Of a DNA stretch of 38,949 nucleotides, positions 23,877-38,588 are shown piece by piece. The translations under genes were made by a program, and so were the position numbers. This stretch comes from Candidatus Gracilibacteria bacterium S5_H10 (GTDB lineage Bacteria; Patescibacteriota; Gracilibacteria; Absconditabacterales; Absconditicoccaceae). The notes beneath the pieces were generated by a model. It saw only the letters and a list, made by a program, of their open reading frames with translations. It ran no database searches and was not told where the DNA came from. Within the stretch, counting starts at the first letter, position 1. Each line of letters starts with the position of its first letter. The stretch is from contig JAEHHG010000005.1 in assembly GCA_019248075.1 (NCBI GenBank), positions 1-38,949 on the forward strand. The letters run 5' to 3'.

Positions 23877-26357
23877 TTAGACACCGACTCTAAAAAAGAT
23901 TTCTTTGTCTACTAATTCTCTTTTCGTTCATCGCTTCAATGCAGAGATTTGTTTCATGATCTCTACTTTTTCTGGTATATTGAGCGCTGGTTTTAACCAA
24001 GGCAGATCTGTGGTAAAACTGAATGGTCTTGTTGGCTGATTATTGACTACTATTTTTGCTGCTGCTCTGAAGGTGTCTCCATTTACCATATCGATTGCTG
24101 AAAATTCCGGACCGAATTCTTTTTCCAAAAACTCTGCATCAGGAGCACCTACTTTATGAATAAATAAATTTCCTACGTTACCAAAGATAGTTTTGGAAAG
24201 ATCAAGATTTCCTCCCAATCATTCTTGTTTTAATTGATCAATATATTGGTGAGCTATGATTAATCATAATTTATATTTTCTTGCCTCAGACAAAATGCTT
24301 TCGATAGATTTGGAAACATAATTTTGGAATTCATCGATATAGAGAAAATATGGTATTCTTTCTTTTGGATCGAGCCTTGCTCTTTTTAGCGCGGAAAGTT
24401 TGAGTTGCATAGATACCATTCTTCCTACGAGCTTACTGTTTTCTTCTCCGGTAAGTCCTTTTGCTAAATTCACTAAAATTACTTTTTTGGAATTCATCGC
24501 GTCGAAGAAATTGAATGCAGATTTTGGTTGTCCAATAACGTTTCTGATATATGTCCCCGTTGTAAATGGTCAGAATTTTGCTTGCAAAAATGGGATGATC
24601 TCTGCTTTTTCTCTGTCACCCATTTTTTTGTATGTTTTATTCCATCGTGCTGCGATGATAGGATTTTTTACGTTTCTTATCTTGCTTTCTGCAAATGCAT
24701 CGTCAGTAAAGAGTCTCATGATATCTACCAGCGTTCCTCCTTCCGGTTGCTCCATTAATAAAAAACATGCATTACGGAAGTAATCTTGAATACGTGGTCA
24801 AAAGATTTCTTCTCCATACATAGAAACAAACATTTCTACGAGATCGTTGGTGACAACATCTCTTTCATCGTCATTTTCTGGTCCGTCCAAAGGATTGAAG
24901 GCAATCGGATAATCAGTATTGGAAAGATCAAAATAAATCAGATCATCTATTCTTTCTTTTGGAAAATATTTCATGGTGTCTTCTATAAGATCGCCATGAG
25001 GATCGATAATGCAAAAACCATTTCATAGTCTTATATCTTCCAATACACATGTTTTTATAAGCGTTGATTTACCGGAACCCGTCTGTCCGATAATATACAT
25101 ATGTCTGAATCTATCATCATTGTTGGTCATGATCTTAATTTCTTTTTTTACTCCTGCATAGGTGTTGTATCCGAGCATGATTCCGTCAGTCGGAATGTTG
25201 TCTGGAGCAGGGATAATCTTATATTTTTGTCGGCTGATGCGAGGATTTCTGTTGAATTTTGCGTTTGGAATATGGATGATAGAGGAGAGCTCTTTGATAC
25301 TCAGGATGAGTTTTTTGTCTCGTTTCGTCATATTTTTTATTGTGCCGTTGTCACTTCGAAATAATCTATTGATGAAGTCTTTTGCAAACTCTTGAATGTT
25401 TTTGGATTTTTTGAATTTGAGTGTGTTGAGTCCTATATAATTGTATTGACTGAATCATCTTGCAAGATCGTCGATAATCCTGTCTGTTCTACTACTATCT
25501 GGCGATGTTACCAGTGCTCTTATTCTGATGCTAAATATTTCGTCTTCGGTCTTTTTGTCCAAATCTCCTATTTGTTGTTGAGTAAGATCATTTTTTTTCT
25601 CGTCGTCTTTTGGTACGTCTTTGTTGTCTGTATTCGCGCTTGTAATACCTCTTCGTATGTCTTTGAGTAGCATTGCTACAAATCATTTGTTTTTCCCTTC
25701 TTTGATTTTTTTGGATTGCTTTCTGAGCTCCTTGAGCGCGTTTTCATCAAGCGGAGAAACAAGTATTTGTAAACACATTTTCTCGTCTGTGAACACTTTG
25801 GAATATGCAGAAAGAAGACTATCCATAGGATCAGCTTCAAATCCTTCGTAAGTTTTTATCGGATAGGCATTGGATTTTGTCAAAATAAATTCTCCACCTG
25901 CCATATATTTTCCTGCTTCCAATATTTTTGGTTGATCGATAGGATCTACTACCGCTCCTATATAAAATGATGAAATGAGCTTTTCCATATTGTCTACATG
26001 TTCTTCTGGCACTCCCATGATAAACTTTATTACTTCTTTTTCTATGAACATTTCCATGCTGATATAATTGTGTCAGAATTTTTTATATTTTCGTTTGTCA
26101 TCTATGATTGAATAAAAATTTTTATAAATCTGATTCATGATCTGAATGTTTTGTTTCATGTCTCTGATACTATCTCCACCATCATCGCCTCATTTTGTGG
26201 TTACGCTTTTTGGAATTTTGATTTGAAGATATCTTAATTTGCTTGCTTGTTGTTTTCTGTGATTTTTGTGCATCGACGAAAAAATAGATTTAATCACCAA
26301 TGATCAGATCAGTCGTATTCCTCATGCTATAATAACGATAATAAGTAGGTCAGACAT
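23877..26357 (-). CDS. Membrane-anchored VirD4/TraG-like ATPase
   Basis: Six frame fragments join through TGA glycines into an 826-residue protein. ATG 26357 gives a hydrophobic N-terminal anchor (MSDLLIIVIIAGGIRLIGSL). After a ~300-residue region comes a RecA-like motor: DRFRHMYIIGQTGSGKSTL (Walker A near 424), CIIDPHGDLIEDT, LVNLAKGLTGEEN, and Walker B YFLYIDEFQNY near 674. The order and spacing match the DUF87/TraM-recognition group of VirD4/TraG-type ATPases, hexameric motors at type IV secretion or conjugation machines. CPR genomes often carry such proteins without a complete secretion system. A paralogue lies at 31705. No relaxase or VirB channel genes are here, so substrate and partner are unknown. 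Confidence 0.85.
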
Positions 26358-30790: not shown

Positions 30791-31222
30791 ATGGAAAACT
30801 TTAACGCAAAATTATCATCTGAATCAGTTCGTCATGTAAACACATTGATCCAAAAAATTGAAAGTGTTTGCAAGGATATCGAAAAAGGTCTTGCTCAATG
30901 TTTTGAGCTCAGCGGAGATTCAGTAGCTCAATATAGTGTAACTACTGCAGCAAAAGTAGATTCTGAATTTGTAAATGTTGTTATCGACAACATTACTAAA
31001 ATCAAACTTCATCTTGAAGATCTTAAAAAAGCATTGAATACAAAAGTGATTACTGATGTTGAAAAGATTATCGGTTCACTTCAAGATACTTCTGCTACAT
31101 TACAGACGTTTTTGTTGGCAAACAATTTCAATAATAATACATTTCAGCTCCCTGTAATGGAAATCCAAGCGACTATTGATCAAATTTTTGAAGAAGTGAG
31201 TCTAGTAGAAGAATACGCCTAA
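30791..31222 (+). CDS. Small helical hypothetical protein (143 aa)
   Basis: This soluble protein is almost entirely helical, with heptad-like spacing: VRHVNTLIQKIESVCKDIEK, INNITKIKLHLEDLKKALN-type stretches and VMEIQATIDQIFEEVSLVEE. It lacks a signal peptide and any TGA codon, and its codon choice (GAA, AAA, GCT, GTT, few rare codons) suggests good expression. The bundle-like pattern resembles small secreted or scaffold helical-bundle proteins, but I assign no family. It stands alone with its own strong terminator. Confidence 0.75.
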   Translation: MENFNAKLSSESVRHVNTLIQKIESVCKDIEKGLAQCFELSGDSVAQYSVTTAAKVDSEFVNVVIDNITKIKLHLEDLKKALNTKVITDVEKIIGSLQDTSATLQTFLLANNFNNNTFQLPVMEIQATIDQIFEEVSLVEEYA

Positions 31223-31704: not shown

Positions 31705-34686
31705 TTATTTCTGGCTTCGAACGACTTTTTGTTCACCGTTGATTTCTTTGAATTCTTTGGCTTTGACTTTGATCTTATCGCCGATGTTATAATATTTTTT
31801 CCATTCGACTCATGCAGGAGCGATGATGAAATTTTTGTGCAATAATCCTTCTACTCATTTTACGGTAACGAACATTCCGTAATTGTAACTGAGTTTGATA
31901 TATCATTCATATTCTTGTCCTATCTTTATATCTTTGATAGTGAATCCGGTTTCATTGTTGCTTGGTATTTTTTCCGGAGCAAACGAAGCTGTTGTTTTAC
32001 TCGGAGCTGTTGTTGATTTCTCTGATTCTGCTGGTTTTGTCTGTGCAGGAAGTGTTTTTTCTATTTTTGCAATGTTTGGACAAAACTTCAAATAATTTTG
32101 TGTTTTGATTCCTGCCTGTTGGTAAATAGATTCCAACTGCTGCAAGGCATCGTTTTTATTCCCTATCCAAATCATCAAAGGACCACCATTGTTTTCTATT
32201 TGAATAGTTTGATGCTGATAAATGTCGACATGTACAGGAACTTCTTTTTCTCCAAAGCTTACTTTTCCTCCTTTGGCATATTTGTTATTTGCTTGATCTT
32301 CCAGTCATTTTGGTTTTGTATACCAGATCGCTTTGTGGGCAAAGTATTCTGTATCAAAAATGATTGCATCAGGTTCTACTCCATCAATGGCAAATTCAGT
32401 GAAATACGATGTGTGCTGTTCTACAAAGAGATCATGCAGATTTTCTAATTCTTCTTCGTTTATCCCCAATGATTCTAATCTTGCTTTTTCCATGATTTTT
32501 TCTTGTACGGAAAATGTCTTGTTGGATCGTGCAGTCATCAATTTTTCTAGCTGAGTCCTCTCCATTGCGTATCTTTGTCTTGATTGTTTTCTGATCTTGT
32601 CGATTAATTCGAGTGATCATTCGCCGATGAGGTTTGGTGGCAATGTTTTGGTGCTAAACGGGTCGGAGGAGATTCCGTCGATCATTAGTCTGGTATATGT
32701 TGTATATTTTGGTAGTGAAATTAAATCATTTACGGAAACCATTCCTTTGAATTGTCCTGTGATGACATCAGCATCATCTTTACCTACGGTAAATGCTATC
32801 GTTGTTCCTACGTTTCCAAAAATCGCATCTTTTATACTCTCCAAAAGCTGTGAGGTATATTGGTTGGCTACAATCAATGATAATTTATATTTTCTTGCTT
32901 CTGAAAGAATTGTCACGAATGATTCTGATGCAAAGTTTTGGAACTCATCGATATAGAGATAGAAATCCCTTCTTTGATGTACAGGAATATCTGCTCTGGA
33001 CATAGCATCGATCTGAAATTTTGTCACTAATAATGATCCAATCATGTTCGCATTATCTTCTCCGATCCTTCCTTTACTCAAATTCACTAGGATAATTTTT
33101 CCTTCATCCATCGCTGTTCTCAAGTTGAGTTTCGTTCTTGGTTGCCCAAAAATATTTCTGACTAATTTGGACGAAAGAAACTGTCCTACTTTATTGGTTA
33201 TCGGAGATATCGCTTCATCCCTTTGTTTGTCGTTCCATTTATTAAATTCTGATGTCCAGAATTTCAAAACGACAGGATCTTTTATGCAGGAGATAACTTC
33301 TTCACGAAAAGTCTTGTCCGTAAGTACTCTGAGGATGTGCATCAGTGTAGCGTTAGGATAATCTACGAGCGATATTACTACATTCCTCAAGATATATTCT
33401 AATCTTGGTCCTCGACTATTTTCAAATAATTTGTTGAATGTTGAAACGACTCCTGAAGCCACAAGATTTTTTTCTTCTTCAGTGTTTGCTTGTAATAGAT
33501 TAAATCCTATCGGAAAATCGGCATCTGCAACATCAAACAAAATAACGTCATTGATTCTATTTGTCGGGATGTGTTCAAGGACGGAATCGACTAATTCTCC
33601 ATGCGGATCCAATAAACACAATCCGTTTCCAGCTTTCATATCACTGATAATCATGTTGCTGAGAAAAACTGATTTACCTGTACCTGTTTTACCGACAATA
33701 TACATGTGTCTGAATTTATCTTCTTTTTTGATTCCAAATGTTATTTTTTCTCCTCTATAATCAGTGTTTCCTAGGATTGTAAGATCTTTTACGTCAGTAT
33801 TTTTGCTTGTAGGCAAATTTGTTGGGTAAGGCAGTTTTCTATATGGTGTATATTCTAATCCTTTATTGAAGTTTTCTATAGTCGGAATGTGAAAGAAATT
33901 TTCCGCTTGTGCATGAGCCATTCCGTGAAATCATTCAGATGTCTTTATTTTTATCTTTCCATTGGAAATAAACGGCGCAAATGCTGCAACGATATTTTTT
34001 TTGAGTGTCTCTTTTGTGTATTGATCTTTGCTTACAACTCTATAACTAAATGATCCAAATATCTCTGGTTTTTCTTCAACAGTTTTTTCTGCTGTTGTGC
34101 CGTCGGGATTTTTCTTTTTTGGTTCTCGGATTCGTTTGAAAATTTTGCTGAGATATTGTAAAAAATCTTTTTTGAGTCAGAACGTATACGTAAAATATAT
34201 ATCAAGCCTAGATTGTATATCTACCATGTTGTATAGTGCAAAGATTCCGTTCATCGGATCCATATACATTCCTCATCTTGTGAATTCATCTTTGTTGAGT
34301 ATTTTTCCTTCTTTGGAAAAATGGATCCACTCTCTTTTTTGTGGTATGGAAACAGGCTTTTCTAGCTCTATAAGATCTGAAGTGGGGTAGCTTGTGTAGA
34401 AAGTATTTTCAAAATAGTTTTTGAAGTCTTTTGGTACGCCGACATATAATTTGATCGAAGAAGAATTTCCGCTTATCATGAAAATGATCTTCTTCTGTTT
34501 GAGACTGATAATATTTTTGCTCACGGTATCTCGATGATTGACACCACGATCATTGTCTTTGAATGGTTTTATATGAAAAAAAACATACTCTGTTGCGTGA
34601 CTTGTTGTCGTCGGTGCAGTTTTCTTTTGTTTTTTTCCTCATGTTCAGGCAATCATTTGGCCTAATTTCTCTGCGTGTTTTAACAT
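31705..34686 (-). CDS. VirD4/TraG-like ATPase with C-terminal S1 RNA-binding domain
   Basis: Seven TGA glycines join fragments into one 993-residue protein from ATG 34686. The N-terminal ~250 residues include a mixed alpha/beta region. The motor has DKFRHMYIVGKTGTGKS (Walker A 332-339), CLLDPHGELVDSV, VNLSKGRIGEDNANM and Walker B YLYIDEFQNF (near 579), as in the paralogue at 23877. After a helical linker (IRKQSRQRYAMERTQLEKL) and an uncharacterised region comes a Pro/Thr/Ser-rich hinge. The last ~75 residues form an S1/OB domain: IGQEYEGYIKLSYNYGMFVT, VEGLLHKN and YYNIGDKIKVKAKEF. S1 domains bind RNA or single-stranded DNA. I checked the frame codon by codon across each junction; it is continuous. 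There is no N-terminal membrane anchor. Confidence 0.85.
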
Positions 34687-34990: not shown

Positions 34991-35754
34991 GTGTATTTGT
35001 ATAGTTTTGATCGCTTTTTCGGCTTTGATAAGGTATGTATTTTAGCTGAAAATACCAGTAAAAAAACAGTGAAAGCAGGAGATTTGCTGATAGCAGGCAA
35101 TCAATATTTTTTGGCGTTAGGAAAAACAATAGCGTTTGCTGAACAATACCAGCATTTGGAAACTGTAAAAGCTGAATTGATATATCCGCATTTTCTCAAA
35201 AAAATTCACTGGATCTTCTTCATTGGATGGTGAAAACATATTATACGACCTACAAATCTGTGATGAGACTTTTTTGTACGAATGCTATAGAAAAGCTTCT
35301 TGAACGTGAAGGAAAGGTGAAAATACTCAAAAATAAAAAATTTGAAATTTGAAATTCGAAATTTGAAATTTGAAAGGAATGACAGACTCTGATTGTCTTT
35401 CCTGATTTGTGGACAATATTCAATATGGTTCCTGCGGAACGATTAAACGATAAAGTGATAAAACCCTCTAAAGAGTCCAAGTGATGAAATGAACATATAG
35501 CGTTCTTGTCGGCGACACAGACAGAGAAGCAAAAGGATATCCATCGATGGGAAATCAAGAAGGGGATGAAATCAGTTATTATCTGTACTTATGCTGAAAT
35601 ATTTCAAGATTTTCATGACTTAAAAAAGATAATTTTCGTTGATCCTCATAAGCGATATTATGCGAATCAACAAGATCCTAGGTATAAAGTAGGAGATGTC
35701 CTTGCTCAGATAGCAAAACTCTCTTGAGTAACGATAGAAACTTTGGGTGTATAA
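34991..35754 (+). pseudogene. Damaged PriA-like primosomal protein gene
   Basis: Two frames read together as a truncated PriA. Frame A (34991, GTG) gives an N-terminal DNA-binding-type segment (VKAGDLLIAGNQYFLALGKT). Frame B, open up to TAA 35752, gives LDLLHWMVKTYYTTYKSVMR, like the PriA LxLIxWIxEYY segment, then IVFPDLWTIF, RWEIKKGMKSVIICTYAEIF and YYANQQDPRYKVGDVLAQIA, like the YKQ..PRYHARDVA stretch. The frames meet at an A7 run (35198-35204); one extra A or a -1 slip joins them. The expected Walker A region is occupied by a TTTGAAATT repeat (35339-35375, read KFEIGNSKFEIG), the DEEH box is FVDPH, and the helicase C-terminal half is absent. Likely inactive as a helicase. Confidence 0.6.
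35339..35375 (+). repeat. TTTGAAATT-type repeat inside the PriA-like frame, copy 2
   Basis: AATTTGAAATTTGAAATTCG and the following AAATTTGAAATTTGAAA keep the reading frame open only because TGA means Gly, giving a repeated KFEIG unit. Related tracts at 27541 and 37346 are intergenic. Confidence 0.75.
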
Positions 35755-37441: not shown

Positions 37442-37451
37442 TTTGCAAGCT

Positions 37452-38588
37452 ATGGGGGAAACAGAAAAACAAGATATACAAGAGTACCAACCAGGGCCGA
37501 TTGATAGTACAATCGTATCTGCTTTACAATCTATGGACAGAGGAAGTTTCTGATCCAAAGATAAAATTTTGTTTTTCAAAGAAGTTGCGTATTTGCTCAA
37601 TGGATGAATCTCTCTTGTCGAAGCTATGAATATCATTGGTCAGAGTTCTGACAATTATGCGCTCAAAGAGATCTCAAGAAATATTTTAGCATTTCTTCGT
37701 AGAGGAAAGAGTTTTTCGTATGCACTCAATAGACTACCTGATTATTTTGATCAGTGAGATTATACCATTGTAAAAGCTGGAGAAATGTCTTGAAATCTTC
37801 CGATGATCCTTCAGTCTTTGGCTGGTGAATATGTGTATATCAAAGACATAAAAAATAAATATATCTGAGCTTTGATCTATCCTGCAATTCTTATCGTTAT
37901 TTCTATTGTGGCTGTTTTCGCTTTGTTTTTACTTGTTTTGCCAAATATCTTTTCTATAGCAGAAAGTTTCCAAAATCTTGAATTACCATGGATAACTAGA
38001 GCACTTAATGATATTTCTGTTTTTTTCCAAACACAATGGAAAACAATTTTATGAGTGCTTATTGGACTTGGATTGTTTGGCGGAATTTTCTTTTCTACAG
38101 AAGTGTGAAAAAAAAGTCGATTTAGCTTTTTGCTTAACATCCCTATGGTCGGTAAGATGACTAAATATTTTTATATCGTAAAATTTTGCAGATATACGAA
38201 GCTTATGATGAGTGCTGGAATGAACTATATCCAAACTTTTCAGCTGCTTAGGGACATTCTATGAATTCCTGCATATACGAATATGATTGAACGTGTATTG
38301 GTAGGTTTAGGAAAATGAGAAAACATTTACAATACCTTACAATATGAAACAGATCTGATTCCTTCCGACGTATCCGTGATGATCAAGGTCGGTGAAGAAA
38401 CAGCGAATCTCTCCAATTCTTTGGACAATGTTCTCAAGATGTATGAAGAAGATCTCAATACTATTATTATGCGTTCATCCAAAATTATAGAGCCAGTGAT
38501 GCTTATCTTTGTCGGTTGAATCGTTGTAGTCATCGCTCTTTGAATCTTTGGGTTAATCCTTCAGATTATGGAAGGAGCAGGAATGTAA
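37452..38588 (+). CDS. pilC: Type IV pilus platform protein PilC/GspF
   Basis: This 378-residue integral membrane protein forms the platform that couples the pilus ATPase to pilin insertion. It has the duplicated GspF-type domain: first copy KILFFKEVAYLLNGGISLVE with LPDYFDQGDYTIVKAGEMSG, second copy VKFCRYTKLMMSAGMNYIQT with LIPSDVSVMIKVGEETANLS. Hydrophobic helices follow the first copy (LIYPAILIVISIVAVFALFL) and close the protein (MLIFVGGIVVVIALGIFGLI). At least eleven TGA codons are read as Gly, including the GG of the domain motifs. The pilB/pilT motor genes are not in the window. Confidence 0.93.

What the first reader, a model, noticed from the sequence alone, without database searches (positions are those of the whole stretch)
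31705..34686. Secretion-type ATPase fused to an S1 RNA-binding domain
The 993-residue protein joins a VirD4/TraG-like DNA-pumping motor with a C-terminal S1/OB domain, separated by a helical linker and a Pro/Ser/Thr hinge. The reading frame is continuous through every TGA junction. I know of no standard VirD4/TraG family member with an S1 domain. The combination suggests a motor that binds RNA or single-stranded DNA, for example in nucleic-acid uptake or transfer by an episymbiont that may depend on host nucleotides. It lies one gene from a type IV pilus cluster, the machinery many bacteria use for DNA uptake.
Basis: partly seen in the sequence, partly recalled or inferred. Interest (0 to 1): 0.75.

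Follow-up and report, generated by a model that had tools for sequence, protein, structure and literature searches.

The report
DNA-pump-like motor carrying an RNA-binding tail
A molecular motor of the kind that pumps DNA between bacteria carries, in one whole lineage of tiny parasitic or predatory bacteria (Absconditabacterales/SR1), an added RNA-binding tail that no other group of the motor surveyed here has, which suggests a motor that handles RNA or single-stranded nucleic acid.

Summary
The gene is on the MINUS strand (34686→31705), 993 residues under code 25, with ten in-frame TGA=Gly codons. It has an intact VirD4/TrwB/HerA-type ATPase (about 300-715) and a genuine C-terminal S1 domain (about 916-993): Pfam 1.4e-5, profile match to bS1 domain 3 at 5e-15, and all 50 best structural matches of the tail are S1/OB domains (Z 10.0-11.6). 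It is neither a misassembly nor a frameshift. Of 46 genomes of the same GTDB family (Absconditabacterales), 44 have the S1 tail; it shares one reading frame with the ATPase wherever both lie on one contig, except one genome with a frame break. The fused proteins form one clade (SH-aLRT 99). Orthologues elsewhere in the class, and ATPases of other Patescibacteria, carry no S1: one gain at the base of the lineage. The S1 tail is nearly as conserved as the motor (65% vs 70% pairwise identity). The pilus-gene link holds only inside the genus. No held paper describes the fusion. Most likely: a membrane-anchor-less, coupling-protein-like translocase whose S1 tail captures single-stranded RNA (or ssDNA). 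Direction and substrate are unknown.

The parts
31705..34686 (-). Whole gene: 993-aa S1-tailed VirD4/HerA-type ATPase (code 25 plus probably CGA=Trp)
33907..34599 (-). N-terminal domain, residues 30-260; no TM helix; fast-evolving (32% mean pairwise identity in the lineage); in several other CPR a separate gene just upstream of the ATPase
32542..33789 (-). VirD4/TrwB/HerA-type ATPase domain, residues 300-715 (70% mean pairwise identity)
33667..33693 (-). Walker A GKTGTGKSV, residues 332-340
   Evidence: most positions invariant across 27 CPR sequences
32929..32955 (-). Walker B YIDEFQNFA region, residues 578-586 (D580 E581 invariant)
32047..32451 (-). Optional alpha/beta middle domain, residues 746-880; present in 22 of 34 S1-fused proteins, missing or not alignable in the rest, duplicated in tandem in one genus (L026/L043)
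31951..32046 (-). Disordered Ser/Thr/Pro/Lys hinge, residues 881-912
   Evidence: pLDDT < 50; 13% identity
31708..31950 (-). S1 (OB-fold) RNA-binding domain, residues 913-993; Y936, F939 and H950 conserved throughout
34991..35754 (+). Divergently transcribed PriA-like gene, apparently broken into two frames in this window; the most widely conserved neighbour (four genera)
23877..26357 (-). Second VirD4-type ATPase (826 aa, N-terminal hydrophobic helix, no S1): paralogue, not part of the fusion

Best explanation
The protein is one of the chromosomal VirD4/T4CP-like ring ATPases that Patescibacteria carry. In the ancestor of Absconditabacterales it gained a C-terminal S1 domain, and its lineage has no N-terminal membrane anchor. 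Shown here: an intact ATPase core, a real S1 fold with the canonical aromatic/His surface, a single origin, strict retention and strong conservation. Inferred: it assembles as a hexamer like TrwB/HerA; the S1 domains hang on a flexible hinge at the mouth of the ring, where C-terminal extensions of coupling proteins recruit substrates; there they capture single-stranded RNA (or ssDNA) and feed it to the motor, which moves it by ATP hydrolysis. It may dock on the T4SS whose VirB4-like ATPase is also encoded, or act freely in the cytoplasm. Direction (import, export or internal processing) is not determined.
For: ATPase: Pfam over gathering; best structural match TrwB, Z 30.3 over 369 residues, then DndH C-domain, VirB4, DotL, HerA; Walker A and B kept in 27 sequences. 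S1: Pfam; bS1 domain 3 at 5e-15; all 50 best structural matches are S1/OB domains; Y936 and F939 in 34 of 34, H950 invariant in 13 of 13. Single origin: 40 fused sequences one clade, SH-aLRT 99. Retention: 44 of 46 family genomes, same ORF where both parts lie on one contig. Constraint: S1 65% vs ATPase 70%, N-domain 32%, hinge 13%. No TM helix in the S1 clade against 7 of 17 class orthologues with a clear one. A VirB4-like gene exists elsewhere in the genome. Coupling proteins that lack a membrane domain, and coupling proteins with acquired C-terminal domains, are known (PMC7434980).
Against: No binding or translocation data exist. The acidic residue of the canonical S1 RNA surface (PNPase D64, from memory) is Lys here and the basic one (R68) is Lys, and net charge varies (-4 to +7), so RNA binding is likely but not assured; S1 domains can also bind proteins. 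No T4SS gene is seen linked to it outside the genus. A VirD4-like t4cp was not essential in S. epibionticum (PMC12102498).
Confidence: 0.5

Rival explanations
1. A HerA/FtsK-like cytosolic DNA translocase for DNA processing, replication restart or defence, not for transport; the S1 domain is a ssDNA or RNA tether.
For: DUF87/HerA is the top Pfam hit; HerA structures match well (Z 21-25); no membrane helix; the most widely conserved neighbour is a divergent PriA-like gene in four genera.
Against: The best structural match is TrwB (Z 30.3) with other T4SS ATPases close behind; no HerA partner nuclease was found among the window proteins scanned; the PriA-like gene is degenerate, and appears broken in this window.
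Confidence: 0.25
2. The S1 domain is a protein- or ribosome-docking module: the motor is a protein-export coupling ATPase and S1 binds an effector, an adaptor or the ribosome.
For: Coupling proteins can acquire C-terminal domains (PMC7434980), and the Dot/Icm coupling complex recognises effector proteins (PMC7251119); the canonical acidic S1 surface residue is lost; Patescibacterial T4SS mostly lack relaxases, so protein export is plausible (PMC12102498).
Against: The S1 fold keeps the aromatic/His nucleic-acid face in every member examined; its best sequence match is bS1 domain 3, which belongs to the mRNA-binding part of bS1 (from memory).
Confidence: 0.2
3. The fusion is an artefact: misassembly, a frameshift, or read-through of a true TGA stop between two genes.
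For: One relative (G006) shows the gene in two frames; reading needs code 25.
Against: The same single frame in independent assemblies from many genera, including single-contig genomes G013, G017 and G033; TGA=Gly is established for SR1 (PMC8629427).
Confidence: 0.01

Closest known systems
Chromosomal VirD4-like T4CP homologues of Patescibacteria (5,713 in 2,918 genomes; PMC12102498)
   Same: Same ATPase family, chromosomal, mostly not beside virB4; in the same class the orthologue has the N-domain and ATPase in the same order
   Different: None of the orthologues or ATPases read here outside Absconditabacterales carries an S1 domain; several have an N-terminal TM helix that the S1 clade lacks
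TrwB/VirD4 type IV coupling proteins
   Same: RecA-like motor fold (Z 30.3); Walker motifs; TraG-D_C segment
   Different: No TM anchor; a larger N-domain in place of the membrane domain; an S1 tail instead of the usual acidic C-terminal domain
HerA / DndH / VirB4 ATPases
   Same: Fold (Z about 20-29); DUF87 hit
   Different: No HerA partner nuclease recognised nearby; S1 tail; sequence identity only 12-19%
Ribosomal protein bS1 domain 3 and other S1 domains (PNPase, Tex, NusA, RNase R)
   Same: OB/S1 fold and the aromatic/His face
   Different: Attached to a translocase ATPase instead of a ribosome, exonuclease or transcription factor
Archaeal CedD DNA-translocating ATPase (NF053655)
   Same: Best NCBIfam lead for the motor by E-value (3e-9)
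   Different: 36 bits against a cut-off of 600, so not a member; the match covers only two stretches of the motor

Membership tests
VirD4/TraG-type coupling ATPase (broad superfamily) | RecA-like motor with Walker A/B and TraG-D_C/TrwB homology | tested here: met
VirD4/TraG-type coupling ATPase (classical VirD4 subfamily) | N-terminal transmembrane domain | tested here: not met
   No segment over 1.1 on a 19-residue hydropathy window in the window protein's first 300 residues; TMD-less coupling proteins exist as another subfamily
VirD4/TraG-type coupling ATPase | Docks on a T4SS channel and delivers substrate | not testable with these tools
   A VirB4-like gene exists in the genome, but unlinked
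VirB4 (TIGR00929) | Score over curated cut-off | tested here: not met
   21.6 bits against 643; a separate VirB4-like gene exists, which also scores under that cut-off
CedD DNA importer (NF053655) | Score over curated cut-off | tested here: not met
   36.1 bits against 600
S1 RNA-binding domain (PF00575) | Sequence score over gathering | tested here: met
   25.8 against 22 bits
S1 RNA-binding domain (PF00575) | Five-stranded OB fold | tested here: met
S1 RNA-binding domain (PF00575) | Canonical RNA face (two aromatics, His, Asp, Arg) | tested here: inconclusive
   Y936, F939, H950 kept; the Asp position is Lys and the Arg position Lys
S1 RNA-binding domain (PF00575) | Binds RNA | not testable with these tools
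   Needs an assay
HerA helicase | HerA-type N-terminal barrel and a NurA/SIR2/DUF4297 partner | tested here: inconclusive
   Fold similarity only; no such partner among the window proteins scanned against Pfam

The most novel reading that the evidence does not exclude
A T4SS-derived ATPase repurposed as a dedicated RNA translocase: the S1 tail selects RNA (for example RNA of the prey cell that these predators consume, or their own RNA delivered into the host) and the ring moves it across the cell interface. That would be an RNA-transporting member of a motor superfamily known for DNA and protein.
Probability: 0.13. Interest if true: 0.9.

Novelty: new variant of a known kind. Interest (0 to 1): 0.52.

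Why it matters
Absconditabacterales include predators whose way of taking up host material is unknown. A strictly retained, lineage-defining motor with an added nucleic-acid-binding tail is a concrete candidate for handling host or own nucleic acids, and it is testable with two small constructs (the S1 tail and the ATPase ring). It also gives a clean single-gain marker of the lineage, and shows a VirD4-like motor acquiring a domain not reported with this motor family in the held literature.

Tried and rejected
Frameshift/misassembly: rejected by 44 genomes. Spread by phages or plasmids: the viral contig scan found no relative of the tail; the phage and plasmid hits listed stay between residues 63 and 710 (ATPase and part of the N-domain, no S1) at 21-39% identity. 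S1 fusion elsewhere in the phylum: in a draw of 380 genomes from the phylum, the S1-tail hits listed outside this genome were mostly ORFs of about 350-530 and 700-840 aa (sizes of bS1 and PNPase); the 14 fetched have no ATPase match beside them. Linkage to type IV pili as evidence of uptake: genus-only. DNA uptake for nucleotides as a general patescibacterial need: weakened by the viable comEC mutant. Laying the whole genome in the script box was not available. One batch of Pfam scans and two alignments were first sent with wrong coordinates and repeated.

Full report
WHAT IS THERE. The frame 31705-34686 is open under table 25 on the minus strand: 993 residues from ATG at 34686, ten TGA codons read as Gly. 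Under table 11 it breaks up. The parts along the protein are: an N-domain (about 30-260), the ATPase (about 300-715), a helical stretch (691-739), a folded alpha/beta domain (about 746-880), a disordered hinge (881-912), and the S1 domain (913-993).

THE MOTOR. Pfam gives DUF87/HerA, FtsK, TraG-D_C and TrwB_AAD_bind over gathering. The model's best structural matches are TrwB (Z 30.3, 369 residues, rmsd 3.3), DndH C-domain, VirB4, DotL, then HerA. Walker A (332-339) and Walker B (D580 E581) are kept in 27 diverse sequences. It belongs to the broad VirD4/VirB4/HerA superfamily, but is under the cut-offs of the named NCBIfam equivalogs. VirB4 is a separate gene elsewhere in the genome (itself under the curated cut-off, as in all relatives searched).

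THE TAIL. Pfam S1 1.4e-5. A profile of the tail from 13 proteins matches E. coli bS1 domain 3 at 5e-15, and PNPase and RNase R more weakly. AlphaFold2 of the C-terminal 250 residues has block-mean pLDDT of about 80-93 over the S1 part, and all 50 top structural matches are S1/OB domains with rmsd 1.4-3.7. Of the classical RNA face, Y936 and F939 are in 34 of 34 and H950 in 13 of 13 sequences; the Asp position is Lys and the Arg position is Lys.

DISTRIBUTION AND ORIGIN. All 59 relatives have the motor. The S1 tail is found at E < 1e-15 in 44 of 46 genomes of the same family; in G010 the gene runs off its contig and in G035 only a weak hit is seen. Where both parts lie on one contig they share one frame, except G006, where one frame break splits the gene; in G026 the two parts lie on two contigs. 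Named members are Absconditabacteria / candidate division SR1. Orthologues and related ATPases in the rest of the class have no S1 (0 of 23 loci read, one of them cut by a contig end). Of 67 loci outside the main SR1 set fetched from other CPR and a few stray bins, only one had an S1 hit, and it is itself Absconditabacterales. On the ATPase tree the 40 fused sequences are one clade, SH-aLRT 99, beside the class orthologues. Hence one gain, then strict retention. G020 appears to have two S1-tailed copies (L132, L226).

CONSTRAINT. Mean pairwise identity in 34 proteins: ATPase 0.70, S1 0.65, middle domain 0.42 (alignable in only 22), N-domain 0.32, hinge 0.13. The S1 tail is therefore under selection close to that of the motor, while the middle domain is optional (missing or not alignable in L028-L034, L045, L046; doubled in L026/L043).

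MEMBRANE ANCHOR. Seven of 17 class orthologues have a clear N-terminal TM helix; no S1-clade protein does at its homologous start (L009/L035 show one only in an over-extended start). Some class orthologues without S1 lack it too, so loss of the anchor and gain of S1 need not be one event. Coupling proteins without a TM domain are a known subfamily (PMC7434980).

CONTEXT. Type IV pilus genes (PilC-like at 37443-38588) lie near the gene in every genome of the same genus whose upstream flank could be read far enough (G000, G002, G004, G005, G008), but no PilC homologue is seen in the flanks read from other genera, apart from one weak match about 5 kb away in L200. The more widely conserved neighbour is a divergent PriA-like gene (four genera). 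A second VirD4-like ATPase (23877-26357) with an N-terminal hydrophobic helix and no S1 lies about 5 kb away.

HOW IT MOST LIKELY WORKS (inference). A ring ATPase related to coupling proteins, without its own membrane anchor, with six S1 domains on flexible hinges at the mouth of the ring, where coupling proteins recruit substrate. S1 would hold single-stranded RNA or ssDNA and the ring would move it. Substrate, direction and partner are open. Rivals: a HerA/FtsK-like cytosolic DNA motor; S1 as a protein- or ribosome-docking module. A general role in feeding on host DNA by competence is weakened by the viable comEC mutant of S. epibionticum (PMC10633639), although uptake of host DNA by ComEC and pili has been proposed for Vampirococcus (PMC8080830).

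COMPARISON WITH WHAT IS KNOWN. Patescibacteria carry thousands of VirD4 homologues, mostly away from virB4, of unknown role (PMC12102498). I found no held paper that mentions an S1 RNA-binding domain on such an ATPase (the one paper holding both words concerns the F-plasmid outer-membrane core complex; the library lacks most subscription journals). I therefore file it as a new variant of a known kind.

GENETIC CODE. CGA aligns mostly with Trp at residues 52, 425, 720 and 990, and W990 becomes invariant when CGA is read as Trp. This is the CGA/CGG=Trp reassignment predicted for Absconditabacteria by Shulgina and Eddy (PMC8629427), not a new code.

Noticed in passing
window 31705-34686 (residues 52, 425, 720, 990): CGA codons stand where relatives have Trp: this genome follows the SR1 code with TGA=Gly and CGA/CGG=Trp (PMC8629427), so table 25 alone misreads some residues.
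   Followed up: yes
window 34991-35754 (+): A PriA-like gene, divergent from the motor, conserved beside it in four genera, appears broken into two frames in this window; related copies (L038, L042, L154) run through. The position of the usual helicase DEEH motif reads DPHK here.
   Followed up: partly
C-termini of ATPases in L048-L114: About half of the S1-less ATPases of other CPR end in a short conserved tail, roughly (L/I)xxG(E/D)x(I/V)x(F/I) (30 of 62 by a pattern), which resembles the first strand of the S1 domain; perhaps a docking peptide or the remnant of a domain.
   Followed up: partly
L026 / L043: The optional middle domain (residues 746-880 of the window protein) is duplicated in tandem before a single S1 domain.
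   Followed up: no
L132 / L078 and L226 (one genome, G020): Two S1-tailed ATPases in one genome; in one of them the N-domain is a separate upstream ORF.
   Followed up: partly
window 23877-26357 (-): A second VirD4-like ATPase (826 aa, N-terminal hydrophobic helix) about 5 kb away; neighbours the S1 motor in the same genus.
   Followed up: partly
window 30791-31222 (+): A small 143-aa protein of unknown family, kept near the motor in at least two genera (L038, L042 and the window's genus).
   Followed up: no
CPR loci such as L085, L086, L052, L080: In other CPR the N-domain is a separate gene directly upstream of the ATPase; in the Gracilibacteria class it is mostly fused.
   Followed up: partly
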